Assembly (NCBI GenBank): GCA_945883495.1
Contig: CAMCXS010000038.1
Location: forward strand, 1-55,274
Source of the DNA: Akkermansia muciniphila
GTDB taxonomy: Bacteria; Verrucomicrobiota; Verrucomicrobiia; Verrucomicrobiales; DEV007
DNA: 55,274 nt
Direction of reading: 5' to 3'
Shown: positions 2,605-36,189 of the stretch, one piece after another
Numbering within the stretch: the stretch's first letter is position 1
How the letters are laid out: every line of letters begins with the position of its first letter
The notes under the pieces: generated by a model
What the model saw: only the letters and a program-made list of their open reading frames with translations
Database searches by the model: none
Told to the model about the DNA's origin: nothing
Position numbers and translations under genes: made by a program

Positions 2605-3269
2605 GGATTTTCGAGGACGTAGGCGAGGTGGGTGCGGAGGGTAGCAATGTATTCCCCTCCCTTTTCAGGATCGAGCACCCGGTAGTAGCCCCGGATGTTC
2701 GCCTTTCGATCCACCAGCACCACCCTGGTATCGTGCCGGACCGCGCTCGGGGCGGCCGCTTCCGTGGGCATTTCCGGATAGAGCCGCAGGAAACGCTTCA
2801 CGTACTTTGTCAGCGGCTCTGGCTGTCCGGCCAGAAATCGCCAGCCGCTCTCGGTGAGTCCGTTCCGAGCCAGAAACGCCTGCATCATCTCCGGTTTATC
2901 CTGCTCCGGGGTGGCGCTGAAGAGCACGACACCAAAATCATCCCGGCTGCCATAGTCCTTGGCCACCTCCTCGATCGCCGCCGGGAAAGCCGCCGGGGTC
3001 CCGCCATCTTGAGCCGAGACCAGCGCCGCCAGGTAGACCTTGCCCTTCATGCTCGACAACCGGAACGGCTTCCCGTCCGCCCCCGTGCCCTCGAAGTCGC
3101 GCTCGATTTTGGTGATGAACGGCGGCCGAGGGCTGTTCGCCTCGTAGCGATTCCGTTGCATGTAGGAAATGCCGACCACGACGCCACCGAGCATCAACCC
3201 CACGATGAGCCGGAGAGTCCAGGCCTGGACTCTCGGCGAAGCTTCGGTCGGTGATTCTAGCTGTGGCAT
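2601..3269 (-). CDS. Sco1/SenC-like thioredoxin-fold protein lacking the CxxxC copper motif
   Basis: A 222-residue membrane-anchored protein: a short N-terminus, a single helix (LIVGLMLGGVVVGIS), then a periplasmic thioredoxin-like domain. The pattern DFEGTGADGKPFRLSSMKGKV followed by YLAAL is typical of SCO1/SenC proteins, which deliver copper to the CuA site of cytochrome oxidase. The two copper-binding cysteines should follow YLAAL, but the sequence reads VSAQDGGTPAAFP with no cysteine. The distal His (VRHDTRVVLVD) is kept. A TTG five codons upstream is possible; the ATG at 3269 is preferred. It is coupled to DUF420 by a 4-bp overlap and lies 46 bp downstream of leuB. It may be a non-copper chaperone or a sensor. 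Confidence 0.8.
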   Translation of the reverse strand: MPQLESPTEASPRVQAWTLRLIVGLMLGGVVVGISYMQRNRYEANSPRPPFITKIERDFEGTGADGKPFRLSSMKGKVYLAALVSAQDGGTPAAFPAAIEEVAKDYGSRDDFGVVLFSATPEQDKPEMMQAFLARNGLTESGWRFLAGQPEPLTKYVKRFLRLYPEMPTEAAAPSAVRHDTRVVLVDRKANIRGYYRVLDPEKGGEYIATLRTHLAYVLENP

Positions 3270-3315
3270 CGTCTCTGCGCCCAAACCTTACGATCCAGGC
3301 TCCGCAACGGTTACG

Positions 3316-4892
<1,577 letters not shown>

Positions 4893-7178
4893 ATGTCCGA
4901 TGGATCAGATCAAGCCACTTGTTGGATAGCCCCGGCACCGGAATGGGCGGTGATGCATGAGGTGGAGGCGATCAAATCTGATGGGGAGCCCATCAGCGTC
5001 CTGATGGAAGATCAGCAAATCGATCTAGCCTCGGGACAACGATTCTTCCGGTCAGTCAAAACCCTGCACAATGCCGAGGCGGTCCGCGTCTGCTCGAAGT
5101 TTGAAGCAACCTTCGATCCCGTCACTGACTATTTAGCTGTTCATCATCTAATCATCCACCGGAATGGCCAAACCATTTCGCTTCTGGAAAATGGCGGGGA
5201 ATTCCAATTGCTTCAGCGGGAGACAAACCTCGAACTGCAGGTTTTTGACGGTTCACTCTCCGCTGTCATGCTCATTCATGATGTTCGCATCGGAGATACG
5301 CTCGATTTTTGCTTCAGCAGGATTTCCCGGTGGGAGCTGATCCCCGGCAAACACTCGTTGAGACTCGATCTGGCCCGCTCTTACAAAGTGGCTAGGTTTT
5401 ACCTCACGGTTCTTACACAGCCAGGCAACAGCCTCCAATGGAAGGCGCTGGGAGGCGCCAAGGCATTGAGTTCTCGGGTCACTGAAAGCGCAATTTGCTA
5501 CGAGTGCGCGATTCGCAACTTGGCGCCATTCGAGATCGAACCTGTGACGCATCCCTGGCACGTGCAATCTCCGGAACTGCAATGCAGCAACTTCTCCTCT
5601 TGGGAGGAAGTTGGACAGTCATTGCATCAGCTTTGGGAGCACGCTACGGCCATGGAATCGGAATCCCCCGCACTGACCGAGGCAGTGGAATCGATCCGTG
5701 TGCCCGAGCACTCGCTGGAGGTTCAGGTGGACTCGGCCATCTGGTTTGTCCAGAACGAGATTCGCTATCAGGCGATCAGCATTGGGAACGGCCGGATGAT
5801 TCCTTCCAACCCTGCGGTAGTGTTGCAGAGACGATTCGGCGACTGTAAGGACAAGACCGTCCTGCTCAACTATCTTCTCCATGCGCTCGGCGTGCCGGCG
5901 GTGCCCGTCTTGGTCGACTCTACAAAGGGCCCGGCCCTTTCTCAGTTTTTGCCCTCCTTCGCGGCGTTTGATCATGTAATCTGCTCGTACTGGCTGGAGA
6001 ATCAAAGATACTATGTGGATCCAACGGTGACCGGTCAGGGAGGGAGAGCTAAGACCCGCTACCTACCCGACTACGGCCATGCACTGGAGGTCAGCGCCAC
6101 ATCCCAGGGACTTATGCCACTCGGCCCCAGCGGATACGACGCAGCGCGGGTGGAGATCAGCCAAAAGGTCAAGATTCATGGCAGCGGTGCCGCTGACCTG
6201 GAAGTCATTACCGCGGCGCATGGACTTGAGGCGGATCAAATTCGCTCCCAGCTGAATATTCAGGGAAAGGAAGGGGTGATCCAGGAACTGCGCAGCCAAG
6301 TCGATAACCGCTATGACAACGTCAAGCCTCTGGGGACGCCAACAATTTCAGACAACCTGCCACAGAATGTTTTGACCATCTCCGCAACCTACCGGATCGA
6401 AGATATTACTTTCAAACCCAAGCCCGGAGTCCGGATGTTTGCCGTTAGCACGCTCGATATTCTACCCAGGCTGTTGCCAATCCCACCGGATGTCGAGCGG
6501 AAGAGTCCGATCGCTCTGATCCATCCGACTCACGTAATTGAGCGCATCGCCATCACCACTCCCTGGGCGGTGGCGCGGCGCGAGGAGGTGAAGGTACGGG
6601 GCCCCGGCTTTGAGTTCGACTACACCTGCGCGCCCCAAGGCAAACTGGCAAATCTATCCTTTGAATACCGGACAACGCGAGATCACCTGAGTCCCTGGCA
6701 GATTCCCGAATACGTCCGGAAAATGGAGCAGCTTATCACGGCTTACGTGATCGATCCAAGCAACCTGGTTTCGCCCGATGCCGATTCGACCTCAAAAGGA
6801 TCGAACGCTGGCCCATTCTTGCTTTTCGCCGCAGTGGGCCTGTTGACGGCAGGGTTCTACCTCAAGGATGCGGCTTTTCTGAAGAAGATCCCGATCAATG
6901 CACCGCAAGCGCAGGAGACAACCGCTCCACAGGCGCAAAAGCAACTACTTGCCGAGAAGACTAAGCCCCTTGTTCCGATGCGTTGGTGGACGGACGCCAG
7001 GGGCAACCGGATTGAAGCGGAGTTGACCTTGGTAAGGCTCAATGCGGACAAGCGCTATGAGGGAACGTTCGTGTCCAAGGATGGAACGTCCCGCGTCGTT
7101 ATCATTGGATCCCTTTGCCGCGAGGACGTTGAGCTGGTCCGGGAAACGATGAAGTCCAAGAATCTGCTCTCACCCTGA
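4893..7178 (+). CDS. Transglutaminase-like (DUF3857-type) membrane-anchored protein
   Basis: A 761-residue protein. The N-terminal half is a beta-rich DUF3857-like domain. The middle is a transglutaminase/protease-like core with an intact triad: Cys318 in RRFGDCKDK, His361 in FDHVI and Asp376 in YYVDPT. There is a second beta-rich region, then one membrane helix near residues 636-652 (LLFAAVGLLTAGFY) and a roughly 110-residue C-terminal tail. Bacterial relatives are putative cysteine proteases or amidases of unknown substrate. The first helix being near the C-terminus is unusual; no N-terminal signal peptide is evident. The frame is open further upstream, but the ATG at 4893 begins the family-like sequence and has GAGGA upstream. 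It stands alone between two long gene-free stretches. Confidence 0.82.
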   Translation: MSDGSDQATCWIAPAPEWAVMHEVEAIKSDGEPISVLMEDQQIDLASGQRFFRSVKTLHNAEAVRVCSKFEATFDPVTDYLAVHHLIIHRNGQTISLLENGGEFQLLQRETNLELQVFDGSLSAVMLIHDVRIGDTLDFCFSRISRWELIPGKHSLRLDLARSYKVARFYLTVLTQPGNSLQWKALGGAKALSSRVTESAICYECAIRNLAPFEIEPVTHPWHVQSPELQCSNFSSWEEVGQSLHQLWEHATAMESESPALTEAVESIRVPEHSLEVQVDSAIWFVQNEIRYQAISIGNGRMIPSNPAVVLQRRFGDCKDKTVLLNYLLHALGVPAVPVLVDSTKGPALSQFLPSFAAFDHVICSYWLENQRYYVDPTVTGQGGRAKTRYLPDYGHALEVSATSQGLMPLGPSGYDAARVEISQKVKIHGSGAADLEVITAAHGLEADQIRSQLNIQGKEGVIQELRSQVDNRYDNVKPLGTPTISDNLPQNVLTISATYRIEDITFKPKPGVRMFAVSTLDILPRLLPIPPDVERKSPIALIHPTHVIERIAITTPWAVARREEVKVRGPGFEFDYTCAPQGKLANLSFEYRTTRDHLSPWQIPEYVRKMEQLITAYVIDPSNLVSPDADSTSKGSNAGPFLLFAAVGLLTAGFYLKDAAFLKKIPINAPQAQETTAPQAQKQLLAEKTKPLVPMRWWTDARGNRIEAELTLVRLNADKRYEGTFVSKDGTSRVVIIGSLCREDVELVRETMKSKNLLSP

Positions 7179-26883: not shown

Positions 26884-27777
26884 ATGCAAGTGATCTTCAC
26901 CGCGCTCTTCCTCGTCCTCGCCAGCCTCGCCACCGCCGAGCCGTTTCTTGAAAAGCAGAATCTCTTCAGCGCCGGAGACGATCCCGCTTTCAACATTTAC
27001 CACATCCCCGGCGTCGTCGTCACCGCCAAGGGCACCGTCCTGGCTTGGTGCGAGGCCCGCAAGCGTCCCGCCGGGGTCAGCGATTGGGATGACATCCGCA
27101 TTCTCCTGCGTCGCAGCACCGACGATGGCAAAACCTGGAGCCCGCCCGCCAGCATTGCGAACGTCGAGGGCCCAAAACAGAAAAACCCGTTCGCCCTTCG
27201 GATGAAGAACGTCGATCCCAACGACATTACCTACAACAATCCCGTTCTCATCGCGGATCGCGACGGCACGGTGCATATGCTCTTCTGCTTGGAATATATG
27301 TCGGCGTTTTATTAGCGGAGCCAAGATGATGGGTTGAGCTGGAGCCAGCCGGTTGAAATCACCAATACATTCGCCGCATTCAAGCCGGGTTATGAATGGA
27401 AGGTGATCGCCACCGGCCCTAACCACTCCATCCAACTGAAGAACGGCCGTCTCATCGTGCCCGTCTGGCTATCCACGGGAGAGGGCGGAAACGCCATTCT
27501 CTTTTCCAATCCACATAACCTCTCCCGGGCGCATGGAAAAGAGGCGCCTGGACGAAGCCGCGACCGGAAGAATCTGAGCATCAAGCTGAGCCGGGACGAC
27601 GGCCAAACCTGGCCCGTCAACAAGCCGCTTGAGCCCGGCCCCAGCATGTATTCGGACCTCGCGGTCACGCCGACTGGAACCATCCTCTGCTTCTACGGCC
27701 GCAGCGGCCAACCCGGCTTTGCGGGCGCCTCATTGACCTTGGCGCGGTTCAATTTGGACTGGTTGCTGAACCCGTGA
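26884..27777 (+). pseudogene. Exported sialidase-family gene, broken by an amber codon and an internal deletion
   Basis: The first part has a signal peptide (MQVIFTALFLVLASLATA) and a sialidase N-terminus: NIYHIPGVVVTAKGTVLAWCEARKR, then RRSTDDGKTW, then ITYNNPVLIADRDG. It stops at a TAG at 27313-27315. The same frame resumes at once as RSQDDGLSWSQPVEITNTF and runs to NLDWLLNP, so one substitution interrupts the gene. Around 27484-27500 PVWLSTGEGGN joins directly to ILFSNPHNLSRA; from knowledge of the family roughly 110-130 residues should lie between. The loss is in frame and removes central propeller blades with catalytic residues. The last 48 bp overlap the convergent LysR gene. Confidence 0.85.
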
Positions 27778-28659
27778 CGCTTTCCGGGCGTCGTAGGGCC
27801 GCAGCAAGTCCCGCAGCACCGGATTCGGGAACCGTCGGGTAATGGTGATGGCGTGGAAGGTCTCGCGGATCTCCGTAATCCGGTGCCGTTCCACCAGCAG
27901 CCCGCTCTCCAACTCGCGTCGCACCACCACCGGGGGCACCAAGGCAAGTCCGGCGCCTTCGGACGCCAAGAGCCGCAGCATCGCCATGTCATCCACCTCA
28001 GCGGCAATGACCGGCCGGACGCCCATCCGCTCCATCAATCCGTCAAAGGCCGCTCGCAAGTTGCTATCGTGGCCCGGGAGCACCAAGGGAGTGCTGGCCA
28101 GGTCCAGAGGGAAGCGAAATTGCTCCCGCTGACGGGAGGCTAATTCCACGAGGCTCACCGGCTGCTCGTCGAGGAGACGAGAATGCCAAGGGGTTTCGCC
28201 ATCCCGCTGCACCGGCAAATTGGAAAGGACCACATCCAAAAGGTGCGCCTTGAGCATGGCCAAAAGCTCCCGCAGGTTCCCCGATCGCAATACCAACTCG
28301 ACGTCGTCCCGGCCCAGCAGCGGACGGAGCAAGCCGGCCTGAAAGTTCCGCGACAAGGTGGCCACGGCGCCCACCCGGAGAATCGTCCTCCTTCCGCTTC
28401 CTTGATGCCGCAGGACGTCAATCATTTCCTCGCCAGTTTGGAAAATTGTCTCCGCGTAGTCCAAGGCGATCCGGCCCGCCTCGGTCAAGACGAGCGACTT
28501 GTTTTCCCGGCTGAAGAGTGGCTGGCCAAGACTCTCCTCCAGTTGCCGCAACTGAATGCTCAAGGAGGACTGGGAGAGATTCAGCGCCTTGGCCGCTGCC
28601 GTCAAGCTTCCCTCTTTCGCGATGGCCCTGAAGTAGCGGAGATGATGGTAATTCAGCAT
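27730..28659 (-). CDS. LysR-family regulator, NhaR-like, divergent from dabBA
   Basis: A 309-residue LysR-type regulator. The winged helix-turn-helix is at the N-terminus (MLNYHHLRYFRAIAKEGSLTAAAKALNLSQSSLSIQLRQLEESLGQPLF), and the effector-binding domain fills the rest (ILRVGAVATLSRNFQAGLLRPLL; LVLPGHDSNLRAAFDGLM; DMAMLRLLASEGAGLALVPPVVV). LNYHHLRYF is typical of NhaR-type members. It is 88 bp from dabB on the other strand, the usual layout for a regulator of its neighbour, so it probably controls inorganic-carbon uptake. The last roughly 15 codons overlap the sialidase remnant in antisense. Confidence 0.93.
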   Translation of the reverse strand: MLNYHHLRYFRAIAKEGSLTAAAKALNLSQSSLSIQLRQLEESLGQPLFSRENKSLVLTEAGRIALDYAETIFQTGEEMIDVLRHQGSGRRTILRVGAVATLSRNFQAGLLRPLLGRDDVELVLRSGNLRELLAMLKAHLLDVVLSNLPVQRDGETPWHSRLLDEQPVSLVELASRQREQFRFPLDLASTPLVLPGHDSNLRAAFDGLMERMGVRPVIAAEVDDMAMLRLLASEGAGLALVPPVVVRRELESGLLVERHRITEIRETFHAITITRRFPNPVLRDLLRPYDARKASRVQQPVQIEPRQGQ

Positions 28660-28747
28660 AAATTCAACCTGAAGGCTGCGTCATGGATTGATAAAAGCGA
28701 ACGATATTTAACAGAACATATATTGGAAGAAAAGATCGATTGGATGG
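28660..28747. promoter_or_regulatory. Divergent LysR-dabB control region
   Basis: 88 bp, AT-rich compared with its flanks. It contains the near-symmetric element ATATTTAACAGAACATAT at 28704-28721 (ATAT arms, 10 bp apart), a plausible LysR-type site, and TTGATA at 28688-28693 as a possible -35. The exact promoters cannot be assigned from sequence alone. Confidence 0.4.
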
Positions 28748-30340
28748 ATGTGTGGACCGATGACCGCGCCAGCCCTTTATCATTCGTTACCTCCAAGCGC
28801 AGCTTGCCTTCCCACGGTGATCCTGGCGCTTCTGGCTCCCTTGCTCCCGCTGCTCGCCGCTCTCGCGCCCAGGGTGGAGTCTGGCCCAAGCCGCGCCAAG
28901 CTGGTTCATGGGTCCTTACTTGGATCTCTGGCCGCTGCGGTGGTAACGGCGCTGCTTGTGGGCCTGCATGGGGAAGCACACTCCCTCTGCTTTCAGGTGG
29001 ATTCCCTGACCGCCGTGATGCTCCTGCTCGTCTCATTCCTCGGCGCCGTGGTCACCCGCTACGGCTGCCACTATCTCGCTGGAGATCCCGGACAGAGCCG
29101 CTTCGCCAAGTGGCTCGCGCTCACGCTGACGTCCGTTCTCACGCTGATTGTCTCGGGGAATCTCTTGCTCTTTGCCGTCGCCTGGGCCGCCACCAGCCTG
29201 ACGCTGCACAAGCTCCTCACCTTCTACCCCGCCCGGCCCGCCGCCCTGCTCGCCGCGAACAAGAAGTTTCTCTTCAGCCGGGTGGGAGATCTCTGCCTGA
29301 TCGCCGGGTTGGCTTTGGCTTGGCGCTGCTTTGGGACCTGGGATTTTCAAGAAATGTTCTCCGCCTCGGCCAACCTGAGCTCGGGTTGCGTCGTTCCCCT
29401 CGCGTTCCTCCTCGTGCTCGCCGCGCTGCTCAAGTCCGCCCAGTTCCCGTTCCACAGCTGGCTGCCCGACACCATGGAAACCCCCACCCCGGTTTCCGCC
29501 CTGATGCACGCGGGCATCATCAACGCCGGTGGCTTTTTGGTGGTTCGCCTCAGCCCGATTCTGGTCAACGTCCCCGCAGCGCTCAATGCCCTGGCCATTA
29601 CTGGCGCGTTCACCGCGCTGTTTGCCTCGGTGGTGATGCTGACGCAAACCAGCATCAAGCGCTCCCTGGCCTACTCAACCATCGCCCAGATGGGTTTCAT
29701 GATGCTGCAATGTGGACTCGGCGCCTTCTCGCTGGCCGTGCTGCACATCGTGGCTCACTCGCTCTACAAAGCGCACGCCTTCCTCTCCTCGGGCAGCGTC
29801 GTGGCGCTGAAAAAGGCGGCCTGGTCTCCAACGGAACGTCCTGCCGCCCACCCGGGAATTCTCGTCGGAACACTGATCGCGGCCATCGCCCTGACGGCGG
29901 GAATGGGCGCTTTGTTCGGACTCCGCTGGGATGCCGATCCCGGCGTCCTCCTGCTGGGCACGATCTTCCTCATGGCACTGGCCTACCTCTTCTGGAGCCT
30001 CTGGGCCACCACCCACGAACCGGCACTTTTGGTGAAGGGTCTGCTGGCGGGAGCGGGCGCCTCCGGGGCTTACTTCGGTCTCCATGCCGGTTTCGAAAGA
30101 CTACTCGCCGGCTCCATCCCGCACTATGCCCCGGAGCGTTCTCCGATGGAAGCCGCCGTTATGATCGGCGTCGCCGCTCTTTTCATGGCGGTGACGATTT
30201 TACAAGCCCAGCTCCCCTGTTGGTCCACCAGCCGCCGCATGCGCGCCCTCTACGTGCACATCAGCAATGGTGCTTACCTCGGCACCTGGGCCAATCTGCT
30301 CACCGCACGGATTTTCAAGAACGCCAGCACCACCATCTAA
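28748..30340 (+). CDS. dabB: DabB: proton-conducting subunit of the DAB inorganic-carbon uptake system
   Basis: A 530-residue membrane protein of the NuoL/MrpA family (NADH dehydrogenase subunit 5-like) with about a dozen or more helices. Family landmarks are FQVDSLTAVMLLLVSFLGAVVTRY, LLKSAQFPFHSWLPDTMETPTPVSALMHAGIINAGGFLVVR and TQTSIKRSLAYSTIAQMGFMMLQCGLGAFSLAVLHIVAHSLYKAHAFLSSG. The Lys and His in the last two segments are the conserved proton-path residues. No complex I genes are nearby and a DabA gene follows 3 bp later, so this is DabB. It is thought to couple cation flow to CO2 hydration by DabA. The start could be 28748 or 28760. Confidence 0.93.
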   Translation: MCGPMTAPALYHSLPPSAACLPTVILALLAPLLPLLAALAPRVESGPSRAKLVHGSLLGSLAAAVVTALLVGLHGEAHSLCFQVDSLTAVMLLLVSFLGAVVTRYGCHYLAGDPGQSRFAKWLALTLTSVLTLIVSGNLLLFAVAWAATSLTLHKLLTFYPARPAALLAANKKFLFSRVGDLCLIAGLALAWRCFGTWDFQEMFSASANLSSGCVVPLAFLLVLAALLKSAQFPFHSWLPDTMETPTPVSALMHAGIINAGGFLVVRLSPILVNVPAALNALAITGAFTALFASVVMLTQTSIKRSLAYSTIAQMGFMMLQCGLGAFSLAVLHIVAHSLYKAHAFLSSGSVVALKKAAWSPTERPAAHPGILVGTLIAAIALTAGMGALFGLRWDADPGVLLLGTIFLMALAYLFWSLWATTHEPALLVKGLLAGAGASGAYFGLHAGFERLLAGSIPHYAPERSPMEAAVMIGVAALFMAVTILQAQLPCWSTSRRMRALYVHISNGAYLGTWANLLTARIFKNASTTI

Positions 30341-30343
30341 ACC

Positions 30344-32863
30344 ATGAGCCAATCGATGACTTCCCACGACACCCTTCGCTCCGGGCAAACGTCCCCGGCC
30401 AAGTCTCGCCTCAACGCGAATTGGCAGGCGGTCTCTGCCTCCGCCGTGGCTCAGGAAGCTTGCCGCCGCATCGCTCCGCTTTGGCCATTGCGTCACTTTG
30501 TAGCCACCAACCCGTTTCTTGGACTGACGGGGGATCACTTCATCACCGCAACCGAACGCCTCGGTCGCGTCGCCCCAGGCGGACTTCGCATGGATCTGGC
30601 GTTCTACCGGGATAAGGCTTTGTCCGGCGAGATCACCGAACATGACCTTGAGGTGGCCCGCCTCCGCGCAAAGTCGACCCCCGGCGTCGATCCCGCGTAC
30701 TGGGATAGTCTGAATCTCACGCGATTGCGTTTGGCCCTCTTCCAACCCTCAGGTGACGAACGCATCCCTCAGGAAACCTTGACCTTGGCGGAGACTTTCG
30801 ACAGGATTCATGGCTCCGCTTGGCACGCCGCCCTCACGGAATCCGTCGCGGACTTTTGCGCGGCGTACTTCGATCAGGGCCAAAGCGCCTGGCGCATGCC
30901 TTGGCAGGGCGAATCCCTTTATGCCGCCTGGAAGGAGGCCGGATCGATCGACCGGAAGCCGGAAATGCTCGGCCTCAAACGCTTCCGTGCCCGCGTCCGC
31001 GAGCTGCCGGCTGATCCCGCCGACTCCATCGCCGCTTCGCTGAATGCTTTGCGGATCGACCCGTTTACGGCGCCAGATTATCTGCACCGCCTCCTCCTCT
31101 CGATTCGTGGGTGGGCCGGATATGTCCAATACTTGGTCCGCGAAACGACGATGCGGGGCGGCCAGGACGATCGCCTCCTGGAACTTCTTGCGATCCGCAT
31201 CTCGCTCGACGCCGCGCTCTTGGAGCTGGCCACCATCCCGGACCTGATCGAATTTTGGCCCCCGGCGCACCAACTCGATGACCGGCTGTCGGACTCCACC
31301 TGCGTCCGCCACGTCTTGCAGGTGGCGCTGGAGCATTCTTGGGAGCGCAGAGTCCGCAACGCGATCGACACCAGCCGCGCGGCTGAGCGACTGGCCACCT
31401 TGGAACGCCCGGACGTCCAGGCCGTGTTTTGCATCGACGTCCGTTCGGAAATCCTGCGCCGTTTTCTGGAAGCATCCTCCGCGGGCATTCAGACTCGCGG
31501 GTTTGCCGGATTCTTCGGGCTTCCGATCGAGTACCGTCCCTTGGACATGGAAAAAGGGCAAGCTCAATGCCCGGTGCTCCTGCTGCCACAAGTGGTGATC
31601 CACGAGTGCCACCACGATCCAGCGGAAGACGCCGCTGCTCGTCGCAAATTGGGCATCGGCAAACGCTTCGTCCACGGCTGGAGTGCCTTCAAACATTCCG
31701 CGATCTCCTGCTTCTCCTTCGTGGAAACCGCTGGCTTGCTGTTTGGCGGTTCCCTGTTGCGGGACGGACTCCTGCCCGGCCGTGCCAAGCCGAAAGCCAA
31801 GCACCAGCATTGCGGACCGTCGCTCGATCACGGCGGTGGCATCCCACTAGAAGCCCGTCCCGGCATCGCCTTCGGGATTCTCAAGAACATGGGTCTTACC
31901 GGCGGTTTCGCCCGGCTGGTGCTCCTCTGCGGACACGGCAGCGAAACCAAAAACAATCCCTACGCCTCCGGCCTCGATTGCGGGGCTTGCGGAGGTCACG
32001 CGGGCGATGCCAACGCCCGGGTCGGTGCTCTCCTCCTCAACGACCCGGGCGTGCGCACCGTGTTGGCCAGAGAGCATGGCATCGAAATCCCGCGGGATAC
32101 TTGGTTCCTCGCCGGGCTGCACAACACCACAACCGACGACGTCACCCTCTTCGACCTTCACCAAGTGCCGTCCTCCCACTCGTTGGATGTCGATGCCCTC
32201 CGTGCGCACCTCGACCAGGCCAGCGCCGCCAGCCGCCGGGAACGCGCTCACCTCTTGGGACTTTCCCCGGCTGATCCGGAAATCGACGACCGCATTCGCT
32301 CCCGGGCGTCCGACTGGTCGCAGGTCCGGCCGGAATGGGGCTTGGCCGGGAACGCCGCCTTCATCGCCGCGCCTCGCGCCCGGACAGCTGGGGCCAGCCT
32401 CGGAGGCCGCGTCTTTCTGCACGAATACAATCACCAGGCAGACACCGATAACTCCATTTTGGAGCTGATCATGACCGCTCCCATGGTGGTGGCGAACTGG
32501 ATCAATCTTCAGTATTACGCATCCACCGTAAATAACTCCGTATTCGGCAGTGGAAACAAGGTCCTGCATAATGTCGTCGGCACCCTGGGTGTCTGCCTTG
32601 GCAATGGTGGCGATCTTGAGACCGGCCTCCCCTTTCAATCCGTCCACGACGGCATTCGATTCATCCACGAACCGATCCGATTGCATGTCTTCCTGGAAGC
32701 GCCGACGGACCGGATTGACGCAGTGCTCGCGAAGCACGCCAATGTCCGTGAATTGGTGGAGAACGGTTGGCTCCTGCTCTTCGCCATCGCGGATGATTGT
32801 CAGGTAAAGCGCTACATAGGCAATTGCATTTGGGAAGCACATCCCACACCGATTGCGTCTTGA
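30344..32863 (+). CDS. dabA: DabA: zinc carbonic-anhydrase-like subunit of the DAB uptake system (DUF2309)
   Basis: An 839-residue soluble protein of the DUF2309/UPF0753 family. The four zinc-site residues are present: Cys363 and Asp365 in VFCIDVRSE, His531 in LCGHGSE and Cys546 in GLDCGACGG. The 15-residue gap between His and the second Cys equals that in the Halothiobacillus protein. Family sequence includes WPLRHFVATNPFLGL near the N-terminus and HEYNHQADTDNSILELIMTAPMVVANWINLQYYASTVNN near the C-terminus. With DabB it is believed to turn CO2 into bicarbonate in one direction, driven by ion flow. It is cotranscribed with dabB, with 3 bp between the genes. Confidence 0.96.
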   Translation: MSQSMTSHDTLRSGQTSPAKSRLNANWQAVSASAVAQEACRRIAPLWPLRHFVATNPFLGLTGDHFITATERLGRVAPGGLRMDLAFYRDKALSGEITEHDLEVARLRAKSTPGVDPAYWDSLNLTRLRLALFQPSGDERIPQETLTLAETFDRIHGSAWHAALTESVADFCAAYFDQGQSAWRMPWQGESLYAAWKEAGSIDRKPEMLGLKRFRARVRELPADPADSIAASLNALRIDPFTAPDYLHRLLLSIRGWAGYVQYLVRETTMRGGQDDRLLELLAIRISLDAALLELATIPDLIEFWPPAHQLDDRLSDSTCVRHVLQVALEHSWERRVRNAIDTSRAAERLATLERPDVQAVFCIDVRSEILRRFLEASSAGIQTRGFAGFFGLPIEYRPLDMEKGQAQCPVLLLPQVVIHECHHDPAEDAAARRKLGIGKRFVHGWSAFKHSAISCFSFVETAGLLFGGSLLRDGLLPGRAKPKAKHQHCGPSLDHGGGIPLEARPGIAFGILKNMGLTGGFARLVLLCGHGSETKNNPYASGLDCGACGGHAGDANARVGALLLNDPGVRTVLAREHGIEIPRDTWFLAGLHNTTTDDVTLFDLHQVPSSHSLDVDALRAHLDQASAASRRERAHLLGLSPADPEIDDRIRSRASDWSQVRPEWGLAGNAAFIAAPRARTAGASLGGRVFLHEYNHQADTDNSILELIMTAPMVVANWINLQYYASTVNNSVFGSGNKVLHNVVGTLGVCLGNGGDLETGLPFQSVHDGIRFIHEPIRLHVFLEAPTDRIDAVLAKHANVRELVENGWLLLFAIADDCQVKRYIGNCIWEAHPTPIAS

Positions 32864-33693: not shown

Positions 33694-36189
33694 ATGAGCG
33701 ACCGCTACCAGATCGTAAAGAAAATTGGCCAAGGAGGAATTGGGGCGGTTTACGAAGCCTTCGATACCCAACTCAAGCGCCAAGTCGCGCTGAAGCGGGT
33801 CCTTACGCCAGATCAGGCCAGCCCGGAAGCAGTCGCCGAAGCGGCGGAAAGCCTGATGCAGGAAGCGACCACGATGTCGACCTTGAACCATCCAAACATC
33901 GTCAGCGTTTACGATGTCGGACGGGATGAGCTCGGAGGCTTTGTGGTGATGGAGTTGCTTCGCGGGGAAACGTTGGACCAGACGATCTCGGAATCGCTTC
34001 TGACCTTGGACGATTTCCGGGAAATCGTAAACCAGACGTTGGAGGCGCTGATCGCCGCGCAAGCCGCGGACATGCTGCATCGTGACCTCAAGCCTGGAAA
34101 CGTGATGGTGATCTGGCGCCCAAGCGGCAAGTTTCAGGTCAAAATCCTCGACTTCGGCCTGGCCAAAGTCAGCCATAGCCCTTCCAAGCAGACGATCGAC
34201 CAGGGCGACGCCATCCTCGGCTCCATATTCTTCATGGCGCCAGAGCAATTCGAGCGAGCGCCACTCACCTTCGCGGCGGATTTATACGCCATGGGGGCCA
34301 TTTACTACTTCACGCTGACCGGAAAATACCCCTTCAACGGACCTTCGGCCGCAGCTGTCATGGCCGCTCACCTGCGTCACGACGTGCCTCCGCTCCAGGA
34401 GTTACGCCCCGATCTTCCTCCAGAAATCTGCCAGTGGGTGATGTGGCTGATCAATCGCAATCCGGAGGATCGTCCCCAGTCAGCCCGTGAGGCGTTGGAT
34501 CTGTTCCCCGCCCCGCAACCGACCGGTGAAGTCGTCATGATGGCGGCCATGGTGGCCGACACGGTGCCCGTGGCCCGGGCGCTCCCCGCCGAAGCCACCC
34601 ACTCCCCAGCTCCCAAGCGGAAAGTTCCTGCCCCTCCGCCAGCCGTGGTGACACCGGCCAAATCGACCGGCCCTGTTTCCACCGTCCGCAAACAGACCGA
34701 AAGCTACTCGATTCGCGCGGACGACGATGACGACGAAGAGGAAGGGAACAGCAAACTCAAGCTTCTGCTGATCGTCGGAGTCTCCGTCGGCGCGCTGATC
34801 ATTTTGGCAGCGGCCGGGATGCATCTCGCCAAAGAGGCTAGCCTTGCGAGCTTCCGCAAACGAATTGACACCTTGGCGGCACCGAATCCAGAAGGCACAC
34901 CCAAAGACGTCCACCTTTTGGCCCCGTATCTATCCACCGACCCAAAACGGTCCGACGATCGCGTCCTGAAGATTCTCTCTACAATCACGGGGCCCGGGAT
35001 CGATGAAGCGATCGTCAGCGAACTCAAAAGCGCCCCAGCTGGCCCCATCCGGATTGGCTTGATGCGGGCCCTTGGAAGTCGTGGGGTTACGGCCGCGTTT
35101 GATCCCGTCCTTTCCATCTACCGCTCCACGCAAGGCGAGGAGCGGGCGGTCGCGGGAGAAACGATCCAGCACATCGCGAAACCGGGTCAAGAAGGCACCC
35201 TTTTGAGCTTCCTCAAAGACAACGTGCCCAACCGCGCCGACCTCGAAAGCGCTGTCGTCAACCTCATCCGGCAGAGCAAGGACGTCAACGGCCGCTCTCT
35301 CGGCCTGGTCGAGGACTTGACCGTCAGCAGCGGCGACTACCGGAAAAGCCTTTTCCGTATCGCCGGGCGGGTCGGGGGGACAAAAGCGCTTGAGCGTATT
35401 GGCCGTTCGATGGAGGACAAGGCAGGAGATTATTCGTTTCAATCGGATGCCATGCTTGCCCTTGCCCTCTGGCCAGATCGTTCTGCGGGCAATCTGTTGC
35501 GGCAATTGATGAACAGCGATAATGCCTCGATCGCCTCTGAGGCCTCCCGCGCCTACATCCGGCTGCTTTCAATGCCGGGAGGCGGAGACGATTCTGCCAA
35601 CTGGAAGTTTGTTCTCGAGAAAGCTGCTCGCGGCGATGCCCTGACGGTCTTCGAAAGCATGGCGGACAATCCCACCGCCACCACACTGGCATTCCTGACC
35701 AAAGGAGATCTCCCGGGCTGGGAGCGGACCTTTCAACAAGCGCAAAAAACCGTCGAAGATGCAGCGGCTTCGGCTCATCCGGTGCAATCGGGCAAAATGA
35801 TTTCGGCCAGTCTGGCCAAGCCACGGGGCGCCCCCGAGGGCGCTTCCTTCGTCGAGGAGGGCGCCTATTGGTCATGGACGACGCCGTCGGCTTGGTTCAT
35901 CTGGGTTCTCAACTTCTCCAAGGCGGGCACCTACAAACTAGAGATCATGTGCTCCGCGGAGCATGGCGGCGATAGCGAATTCATCGCTTCCATGGCAGGC
36001 CAGACCCGGAAGGGCACCACCGTGACCACAAGTTCAAAAACCGCCTTCGCCCCGGCGAAGATGGAAGGCGACGGCACCTTCCAAATTAAAGACAACCAAG
36101 TCGGCATCCAAGTGCTTGGCCTGCAAGCCGGCGACGTGACCAAGCCGCGGATCATGAACTTCAACGGCATCAAGCTGACCGCGAAGTAA
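33694..36189 (+). CDS. Membrane Ser/Thr protein kinase with large extracytoplasmic region
   Basis: An 831-residue Hanks-type kinase. Residues 1-275 are the kinase: glycine loop IGQGGIGAVYEAFD, ATP-anchoring Lys34 in VALKR, catalytic HRDLKPGN at 129-136 (Asp131), DFG at 153-155, and GSIFFMAPEQF. A Pro/Ala-rich linker precedes one membrane helix near 355-373 (LLLIVGVSVGALIILAAAGM). Outside lie about 330 residues of helical HEAT-like repeats (for example GPIRIGLMRALGSRGVTAAFDPVLSIY) and a terminal roughly 110-residue beta domain (YWSWTTPSAWFIWVLNFSKAGTYKLEI). The last resembles carbohydrate-binding modules. It probably senses an envelope signal; ligand and substrates are unknown. Confidence 0.9.
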   Translation: MSDRYQIVKKIGQGGIGAVYEAFDTQLKRQVALKRVLTPDQASPEAVAEAAESLMQEATTMSTLNHPNIVSVYDVGRDELGGFVVMELLRGETLDQTISESLLTLDDFREIVNQTLEALIAAQAADMLHRDLKPGNVMVIWRPSGKFQVKILDFGLAKVSHSPSKQTIDQGDAILGSIFFMAPEQFERAPLTFAADLYAMGAIYYFTLTGKYPFNGPSAAAVMAAHLRHDVPPLQELRPDLPPEICQWVMWLINRNPEDRPQSAREALDLFPAPQPTGEVVMMAAMVADTVPVARALPAEATHSPAPKRKVPAPPPAVVTPAKSTGPVSTVRKQTESYSIRADDDDDEEEGNSKLKLLLIVGVSVGALIILAAAGMHLAKEASLASFRKRIDTLAAPNPEGTPKDVHLLAPYLSTDPKRSDDRVLKILSTITGPGIDEAIVSELKSAPAGPIRIGLMRALGSRGVTAAFDPVLSIYRSTQGEERAVAGETIQHIAKPGQEGTLLSFLKDNVPNRADLESAVVNLIRQSKDVNGRSLGLVEDLTVSSGDYRKSLFRIAGRVGGTKALERIGRSMEDKAGDYSFQSDAMLALALWPDRSAGNLLRQLMNSDNASIASEASRAYIRLLSMPGGGDDSANWKFVLEKAARGDALTVFESMADNPTATTLAFLTKGDLPGWERTFQQAQKTVEDAAASAHPVQSGKMISASLAKPRGAPEGASFVEEGAYWSWTTPSAWFIWVLNFSKAGTYKLEIMCSAEHGGDSEFIASMAGQTRKGTTVTTSSKTAFAPAKMEGDGTFQIKDNQVGIQVLGLQAGDVTKPRIMNFNGIKLTAK

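What the first reader, a model, noticed from the sequence alone, without database searches (positions are those of the whole stretch)
33694..36189. Ser/Thr kinase with HEAT-like and lectin-like extracytoplasmic domains
After one membrane helix the protein has about 330 residues of helical repeats and a C-terminal beta domain like those on fucosidases and other carbohydrate-active enzymes. A kinase with a possible glycan-binding sensor, in a genome with polysaccharide-degrading enzymes, would be an unusual nutrient or wall sensor.
Basis: partly seen in the sequence, partly recalled or inferred. Interest (0 to 1): 0.5.

Follow-up and report, generated by a model that had tools for sequence, protein, structure and literature searches.

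The report
Kinase with HEAT and CBM-like sensor
This gene encodes a membrane-spanning bacterial signalling kinase whose outer part is a helical-repeat rod capped by a domain shaped like those that let enzymes grip sugars; related bacteria of the same order carry relatives of it, but nobody has shown yet that it binds sugar.

Summary
Window 33694-36189 (+) encodes an 831-residue Hanks-type Ser/Thr kinase: kinase domain 5-267, linker, one membrane helix (357-375), HEAT-repeat solenoid (about 381-692) and C-terminal beta-sandwich (697-831). AlphaFold2 models from three sequences of one genus, fold searches and family profiles place the outer parts among alphaRep/HEAT proteins and the CBM6/CBM35/CBM36/DUF5077 fold, including the N-terminal domain of a GH29-like fucosidase. 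It is not an oddity of one genome: the outer region is detected in 44 of 57 genomes of the same order (own genome included), and the kinase domains form one supported clade. The kinase half is strongly conserved, the outer half diverges quickly. Glycan sensing is not shown: the position aligned with a Trp of an agarase CBM6 is Trp in 7 of 39 members and Lys here; some members keep HEAT but lack the beta domain; no recurrent neighbour was recognised as a glycan gene. A paralogue in this genome shares kinase, linker and helix but has a different outer domain. Best reading: a receptor kinase with a HEAT-centred periplasmic sensor and an accessory CBM-like cap of undetermined ligand. New variant of a known kind, moderate interest.

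The parts
33694..36189 (+). whole gene, 831-aa transmembrane Ser/Thr kinase
33706..34494 (+). Hanks-type kinase domain, residues 5-267; catalytic Lys34, HRDLKPGN, DFG and APE present
34495..34761 (+). juxtamembrane linker, residues 268-356, Pro/Ala-rich then acidic (DDDDDEEE); poorly conserved
34762..34818 (+). single membrane helix, residues 357-375
34834..35769 (+). HEAT-repeat alpha-solenoid, residues about 381-692, 19 predicted helices, inferred periplasmic
35782..36186 (+). C-terminal beta-sandwich of the CBM6/35/DUF5077 type, residues 697-831

Best explanation
A transmembrane receptor kinase. The N-terminal kinase is in the cytoplasm, one helix crosses the inner membrane, and a HEAT solenoid plus a CBM6/35-like cap lie in the periplasm. 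A periplasmic partner (a protein on the HEAT surface, or an envelope polymer) changes clustering or dimerisation of the outer part, and that turns kinase activity up or down on cytoplasmic substrates, as proposed for PASTA kinases. The HEAT solenoid is the constant sensing element; the beta domain is an accessory that adds affinity, reach or localisation and has diverged, and is missing in some members. Shown here: domains, their order, predicted folds, kinase motifs, spread in the order. Inferred: cellular side, ligand class, dimerisation, substrates.
For: Kinase with intact motifs: catalytic Lys in 38 of 38 members that have the kinase part, HRD in 36 of 38 (HLD in 2), DFG in 37 of 38 (DFS in 1) (3 of 41 rows are fragments without it). 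A hydrophobic segment between kinase and HEAT in 38 of 41 rows at the cut-off used (L067 has a second, weak one at 281); two more have weaker segments (1.30 and 1.22), one is a fragment. Kinase domains of 38 members (window included) plus the paralogue form one clade, support 100/99. Kinase conserved (mean column entropy 1.17), outer part fast-evolving (HEAT 2.51, beta domain 2.38), as expected for one signalling core with varied inputs. HEAT kept where the beta domain is missing. HEAT and CBM-like folds in models. The paralogue shares kinase to membrane helix (201 of 415 identical) but has an outer domain with no confident match, as if the outer domain were an exchangeable input.
Against: No ligand, partner, substrate or expression data. 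Models rest on three sequences of one genus (74-77% identical to the window in the HEAT part); the best of five models is used, the others are lower (mean pLDDT 68.8 to 51.2 for the outer region; 76.1 to 59.1 for the beta domain). Charge around the helix does not settle orientation. A whole-genome search with PP2C_2 gave two matches, both on other contigs, so no such phosphatase gene was found beside the kinase.
Confidence: 0.55

Rival explanations
1. True glycan receptor kinase: the beta domain binds a specific poly- or oligosaccharide (food glycan, own exopolysaccharide or peptidoglycan) and this binding gates the kinase.
For: CBM6/35/36 chains at Z 12.6-14.1 over 112-125 residues; profile matches to CBM6 of beta-agarase (0.0041), CBM35 of exo-glucosaminidase (0.0066) and most strongly to 8zvk AaBgIC (3.5e-8); in this genome the profile also finds the domain on an MGH1/GH63/trehalase-like hydrolase (7.5e-18), on a small protein with CBM_35_2 and CBM_6 matches (4.5e-13) and, partly and weakly, on a sulfatase (1.2e-6, no CBM-type Pfam match there).
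Against: The column aligned with a Trp of the agarase CBM6 is Trp in 7 of 39 members and Lys in the window (that this Trp contacts ligand is recalled; CBM6 has a second cleft that was not tested). The most conserved positions look like core (W728, W737, G745, Y747, T779, F785). Domain absent in at least five members. No recurrent neighbour recognised as a glycan gene. Cry-toxin domains share the fold with Z up to 14.4.
Confidence: 0.27
2. The beta domain only caps or anchors the solenoid (protein-protein contact or stability), with no ligand; all sensing is by HEAT binding of an envelope protein.
For: Beta domain missing in L103, L105 and, by eye on the sequence ends, in L134, L137, L138 while kinase and HEAT stay; the one ligand-site position tested is not conserved.
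Against: Domain present in 39 of 41 aligned members over large divergence, which suggests a kept job.
Confidence: 0.3
3. The outer region only fixes the place of a constitutive kinase; activity is set by cytoplasmic phosphatase or substrate supply.
For: Outer region diverges fast; two PP2C-type matches exist elsewhere in the genome.
Against: Retention of a large outer region in the family.
Confidence: 0.1

Closest known systems
PASTA receptor kinases (PknB, PrkC, StkP, Stk1)
   Same: cytoplasmic Hanks kinase, one membrane helix, extracytoplasmic modular sensor; the best NCBIfam match is PknB_PASTA_kin and the best PDB chains are PknA, StkP/Stk-type and PknB kinase domains
   Different: 257.7 bits against a cut-off of 450; outer part is HEAT plus CBM-like, not PASTA
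Mycobacterium PknD (extracellular beta-propeller) and other STKs with non-PASTA sensors
   Same: kinase, membrane helix and a distinct folded sensor (passages of PMC6213207)
   Different: solenoid plus beta-sandwich rather than propeller
CBM6/CBM35/CBM36 modules and DUF5077 of carbohydrate-active enzymes
   Same: fold and profile similarity of residues 697-831
   Different: attached to a kinase, not an enzyme; the cleft Trp position tested is not conserved
alphaRep / HEAT_2 proteins
   Same: profile and fold of residues 381-692
   Different: part of a natural membrane kinase, not a designed binder
Plant malectin/lectin receptor-like kinases (recalled, no call)
   Same: general plan: sugar-binding-type domain outside, kinase inside
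   Different: different domain order (kinase is N-terminal here); an analogy only

Membership tests
Hanks-type Ser/Thr kinase | kinase domain with catalytic Lys, HRD, DFG | tested here: met
PASTA kinase (PknB/Stk1 type) | score above the NCBIfam PknB_PASTA_kin cut-off and PASTA repeats | tested here: not met
   257.7 of 450 bits, match ends at residue 379; no PASTA family in the Pfam list
Transmembrane receptor kinase | one membrane helix between kinase and a folded outer region | tested here: met
   hydropathy, predicted fold; the side of the membrane is inferred
Transmembrane receptor kinase | ligand binding outside changes kinase activity | not testable with these tools
   none
HEAT-repeat proteins | HEAT profile match and alpha-solenoid fold | tested here: met
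   37 of 41 members match HEAT_2, profile against PDB, model; the window protein alone is below the Pfam cut-off
DUF5077 (Pfam PF16871) | match over the curated cut-off | tested here: inconclusive
   window protein E 0.24, 12 of 24.6 bits, not found; 29 of 41 members match at E<=0.01
Carbohydrate-binding module CBM6/CBM35 | beta-sandwich fold of the family | tested here: met
   on predicted models; Cry-toxin domains share the fold and score alike
Carbohydrate-binding module CBM6/CBM35 | Trp at the ligand-cleft position aligned with agarase CBM6 (role recalled) | tested here: not met
   Lys782 here, Trp in 7 of 39; other possible sites not tested
Carbohydrate-binding module CBM6/CBM35 | measured glycan binding | not testable with these tools
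   none

The most novel reading that the evidence does not exclude
An order-wide family of bacterial lectin-type receptor kinases: a HEAT rod presents a CBM6/35-like domain to glycans at the cell envelope and passes binding to a cytoplasmic kinase, with the outer domain swapped after gene duplication (as in the paralogue of this genome) to read other ligands.
Probability: 0.22. Interest if true: 0.65.

Novelty: new variant of a known kind. Interest (0 to 1): 0.4.

Why it matters
Bacterial receptor Ser/Thr kinases are known mainly through PASTA and a few other sensors (passages of PMC6213207). A conserved kinase family with a HEAT rod and a CBM-type cap, in a phylum whose freshwater genomes have been described as potential polysaccharide degraders (passages of PMC5615132), gives one defined protein in which to test whether bacteria gate phosphorylation by glycan or envelope-protein binding. 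The paralogue with a different outer domain offers a natural swap experiment.

Tried and rejected
Rejected: chance or frame artefact (long ORF with relatives in 43 other genomes); PASTA membership; an operon with polysaccharide genes (in the window the flanks are a DabB/DabA pair ending 830 bases upstream and a convergent DUF2490 gene). Neighbours: one search printed only clusters in four or more of 41 loci; the largest besides the kinase has 10; I named some by eye, several stayed unnamed, and many loci are short contigs, so a weak link to glycan genes is not excluded. Phmmer of the C-terminal domain alone against PDB gave only an antibody chain (E 0.79); the domain needed a profile. PHROGs gave nothing for it. 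The paralogue's outer domain has no confident Pfam or PDB match (Sialidase N-terminal domain E 0.27; a Brix-domain chain E 0.6); its relatives in two same-genus genomes were not checked for a kinase part. In the class search only up to 8 candidates a genome were scored and the match list was cut, so absence outside the order is provisional; of its 30 loci, which reach about 1500 bases to either side, the 9 with a kinase match were all of the same order.

Literature: eight answered searches; none of the papers listed bears on this architecture by title or start of abstract. One search found 239 papers and listed 12; two searches listed 7 of 8 and 9 of 10. Passages were seen of PMC6213207 and PMC5615132. 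The library lacks most subscription papers, so this is weak evidence of novelty.

Rows dropped before counts: L104 (G050) was missed by the ORF search at E 1e-3 and is not in the 41-row alignment though it has a kinase start and a CBM-like tail; three fragments (L081, L084, L095) lack the kinase part; L103 and L105 lack the beta domain, hence 39. Of the 43 other genomes with a hit, regions of 40 were fetched; G005, G021 and G028 were not. Of 13 kinase matches in this genome, one weak one (L153) gave no hit to the kinase query and is not in the tree. The tree's bootstrap had not settled and long branches were flagged.

Full report
What is there. Window 33694-36189 (+) is one open frame of 831 codons. 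Pfam finds a protein kinase at residues 5-267 with 146.4 bits. The catalytic motifs are intact (VALK, HRDLKPGN, DFG, APE). A proline/alanine-rich then acidic linker leads to one hydrophobic helix at 357-375, the only segment above the cut-off in the protein. The rest, about 450 residues, is the outer region.

The helical part. On its own the window protein matches HEAT_2 only weakly (E 0.0064), but 37 of 41 aligned members match HEAT_2 at E<=0.01. The family profile hits a synthetic fusion protein (9sah) at 1.9e-50 and chains named alphaRep, which are designed HEAT-type proteins, from 1.2e-35. The AlphaFold2 model of 380-831 (three sequences, mean pLDDT 77.8, pTM 0.71) has 19 consecutive helices and then a beta domain, and Foldseek's best solved matches are alphaRep proteins (E 9.1e-5).

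The C-terminal part. The window sequence alone is almost silent (DUF5077 E 0.24; PDB phmmer nothing useful; not found by the DUF5077 model in its own genome). The 39-row profile finds AaBgIC (8zvk, 3.5e-8), 4qhw (2.8e-4, titled uncharacterized protein; that it is a DUF5077 structure is recalled), the agarase CBM6 (0.0041) and a CBM35 (0.0066). Of 41 members 29 match DUF5077, 4 CBM_6, 1 CBM_35. Modelled alone (mean pLDDT 84.0) it matches CBM6 2cdp (Foldseek 3.2e-5) and the GH29-like fucosidase FucWf4 (7.1e-5), and with VIA-align CBM6, CBM35 and CBM36 chains at Z 12.6-14.1 over 112-125 residues. Regions of Cry toxins (domain III by recall) score as high (Z up to 14.4), so the fold alone does not tell a sugar binder. 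In the same genome the profile finds the domain on an MGH1/GH63/trehalase-like hydrolase (7.5e-18), on a small protein with CBM_35_2 and CBM_6 matches (4.5e-13) and, over about half its length, on a sulfatase (1.2e-6; Pfam sees no such domain there).

How widespread. The outer region is detected in 44 of 57 genomes, own genome included, all of the same order; 40 of the 44 have one match. Some of these matches are partial. Forty loci were fetched; 39 of them gave 40 ORFs, 37 of 738-951 aa and three fragments. In a class-wide sample of 188 genomes the listed matches that cover the whole outer profile (six) are all in the same order; elsewhere the listed matches cover HEAT or the beta domain alone (list cut). 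Of 30 loci kept from it, the 9 that hold a related kinase are all of the same order. Three of those nine (L134, L137, L138) end with HEAT and, by eye, have no beta domain, as do L103 and L105. A tree of 58 kinase domains puts 38 members and the paralogue in one clade (100/99) apart from the ten other kinases of this genome that were included and nine from elsewhere (bootstrap not settled).

Rates. Outside the genus, members keep 43-68% identity to the window in the kinase but 18-31% in HEAT and 14-37% in the beta domain. In the beta domain the near-invariant positions are W728, W737, G745, Y747, T779 and F785, which look like core (my reading). The position aligned with a Trp of the agarase CBM6 (alignment; that it contacts ligand is recalled) is Trp in 7 of 39 and Lys782 here.

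Paralogue. Contig C47 of the same genome carries a 678-aa kinase (L147), 201 of 415 residues identical over kinase, linker and helix, sister to the three genus copies in the tree (96/89). Its outer domain of about 240 residues is found in 3 of 57 genomes, all of this genus (whether the other two carry the kinase part was not checked) and has no confident family. The simplest account is duplication in the genus lineage followed by exchange of the outer domain (inference).

Surroundings. In the window the gene stands alone: DabB/DabA upstream on the same strand with an 830-base gap, a convergent DUF2490 gene downstream. Two PP2C_2 matches in the genome lie on other contigs.

Mechanism. The kinase must be cytoplasmic to use ATP, so a single helix puts HEAT and the beta domain outside the inner membrane (established reasoning, not measured). 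By analogy with PASTA kinases, where ligand binding has been reported to promote dimerisation (passages of PMC6213207), I take the outer part to bind an envelope partner and tune the kinase. Because HEAT is kept where the beta domain is not, and because the CBM cleft position tested is not conserved, I give HEAT the main role and the beta domain an accessory one. Glycan gating remains possible.

Verdict. The sugar-sensing interpretation is open. The new points are that this is an order-level receptor-kinase family with a fast-evolving, sometimes shorter, and apparently once exchanged outer region.

Noticed in passing
L147:1287-3320 (-), same genome contig C47: Paralogous kinase with the same kinase, linker and membrane helix but a different outer domain of about 240 residues; that outer domain is found in 3 of 57 genomes, all of the genus.
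   Followed up: partly
window 27730-32863: LysR-type regulator divergent from a DabB/DabA-type inorganic carbon transporter pair (Proton_antipo_M, DabA 867 bits).
   Followed up: no
L109:904-1890 (+): Small protein with a C-terminal CBM_35_2/CBM_6/DUF5077-type domain; open frames of about 350-450 aa with a strong beta-domain match also appear in same-order genomes.
   Followed up: no
L076:139-2607 and 2790-5342 (-): Two tandem copies of the kinase gene in one relative (G022).
   Followed up: no
L096:10196-10630 (-), L098:10713-11165 (-), L069:10600-11151 (-), L078:8692-9186 (+): Short lipoprotein-like gene convergent with the kinase in 10 of 41 loci; the window's copy has a DUF2490 gene there instead.
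   Followed up: partly
L142, L143, L151: Other kinases of the same genome carry FGE-sulfatase domains, with RCC1-like repeats in L143 and a PEGA domain in L151.
   Followed up: no
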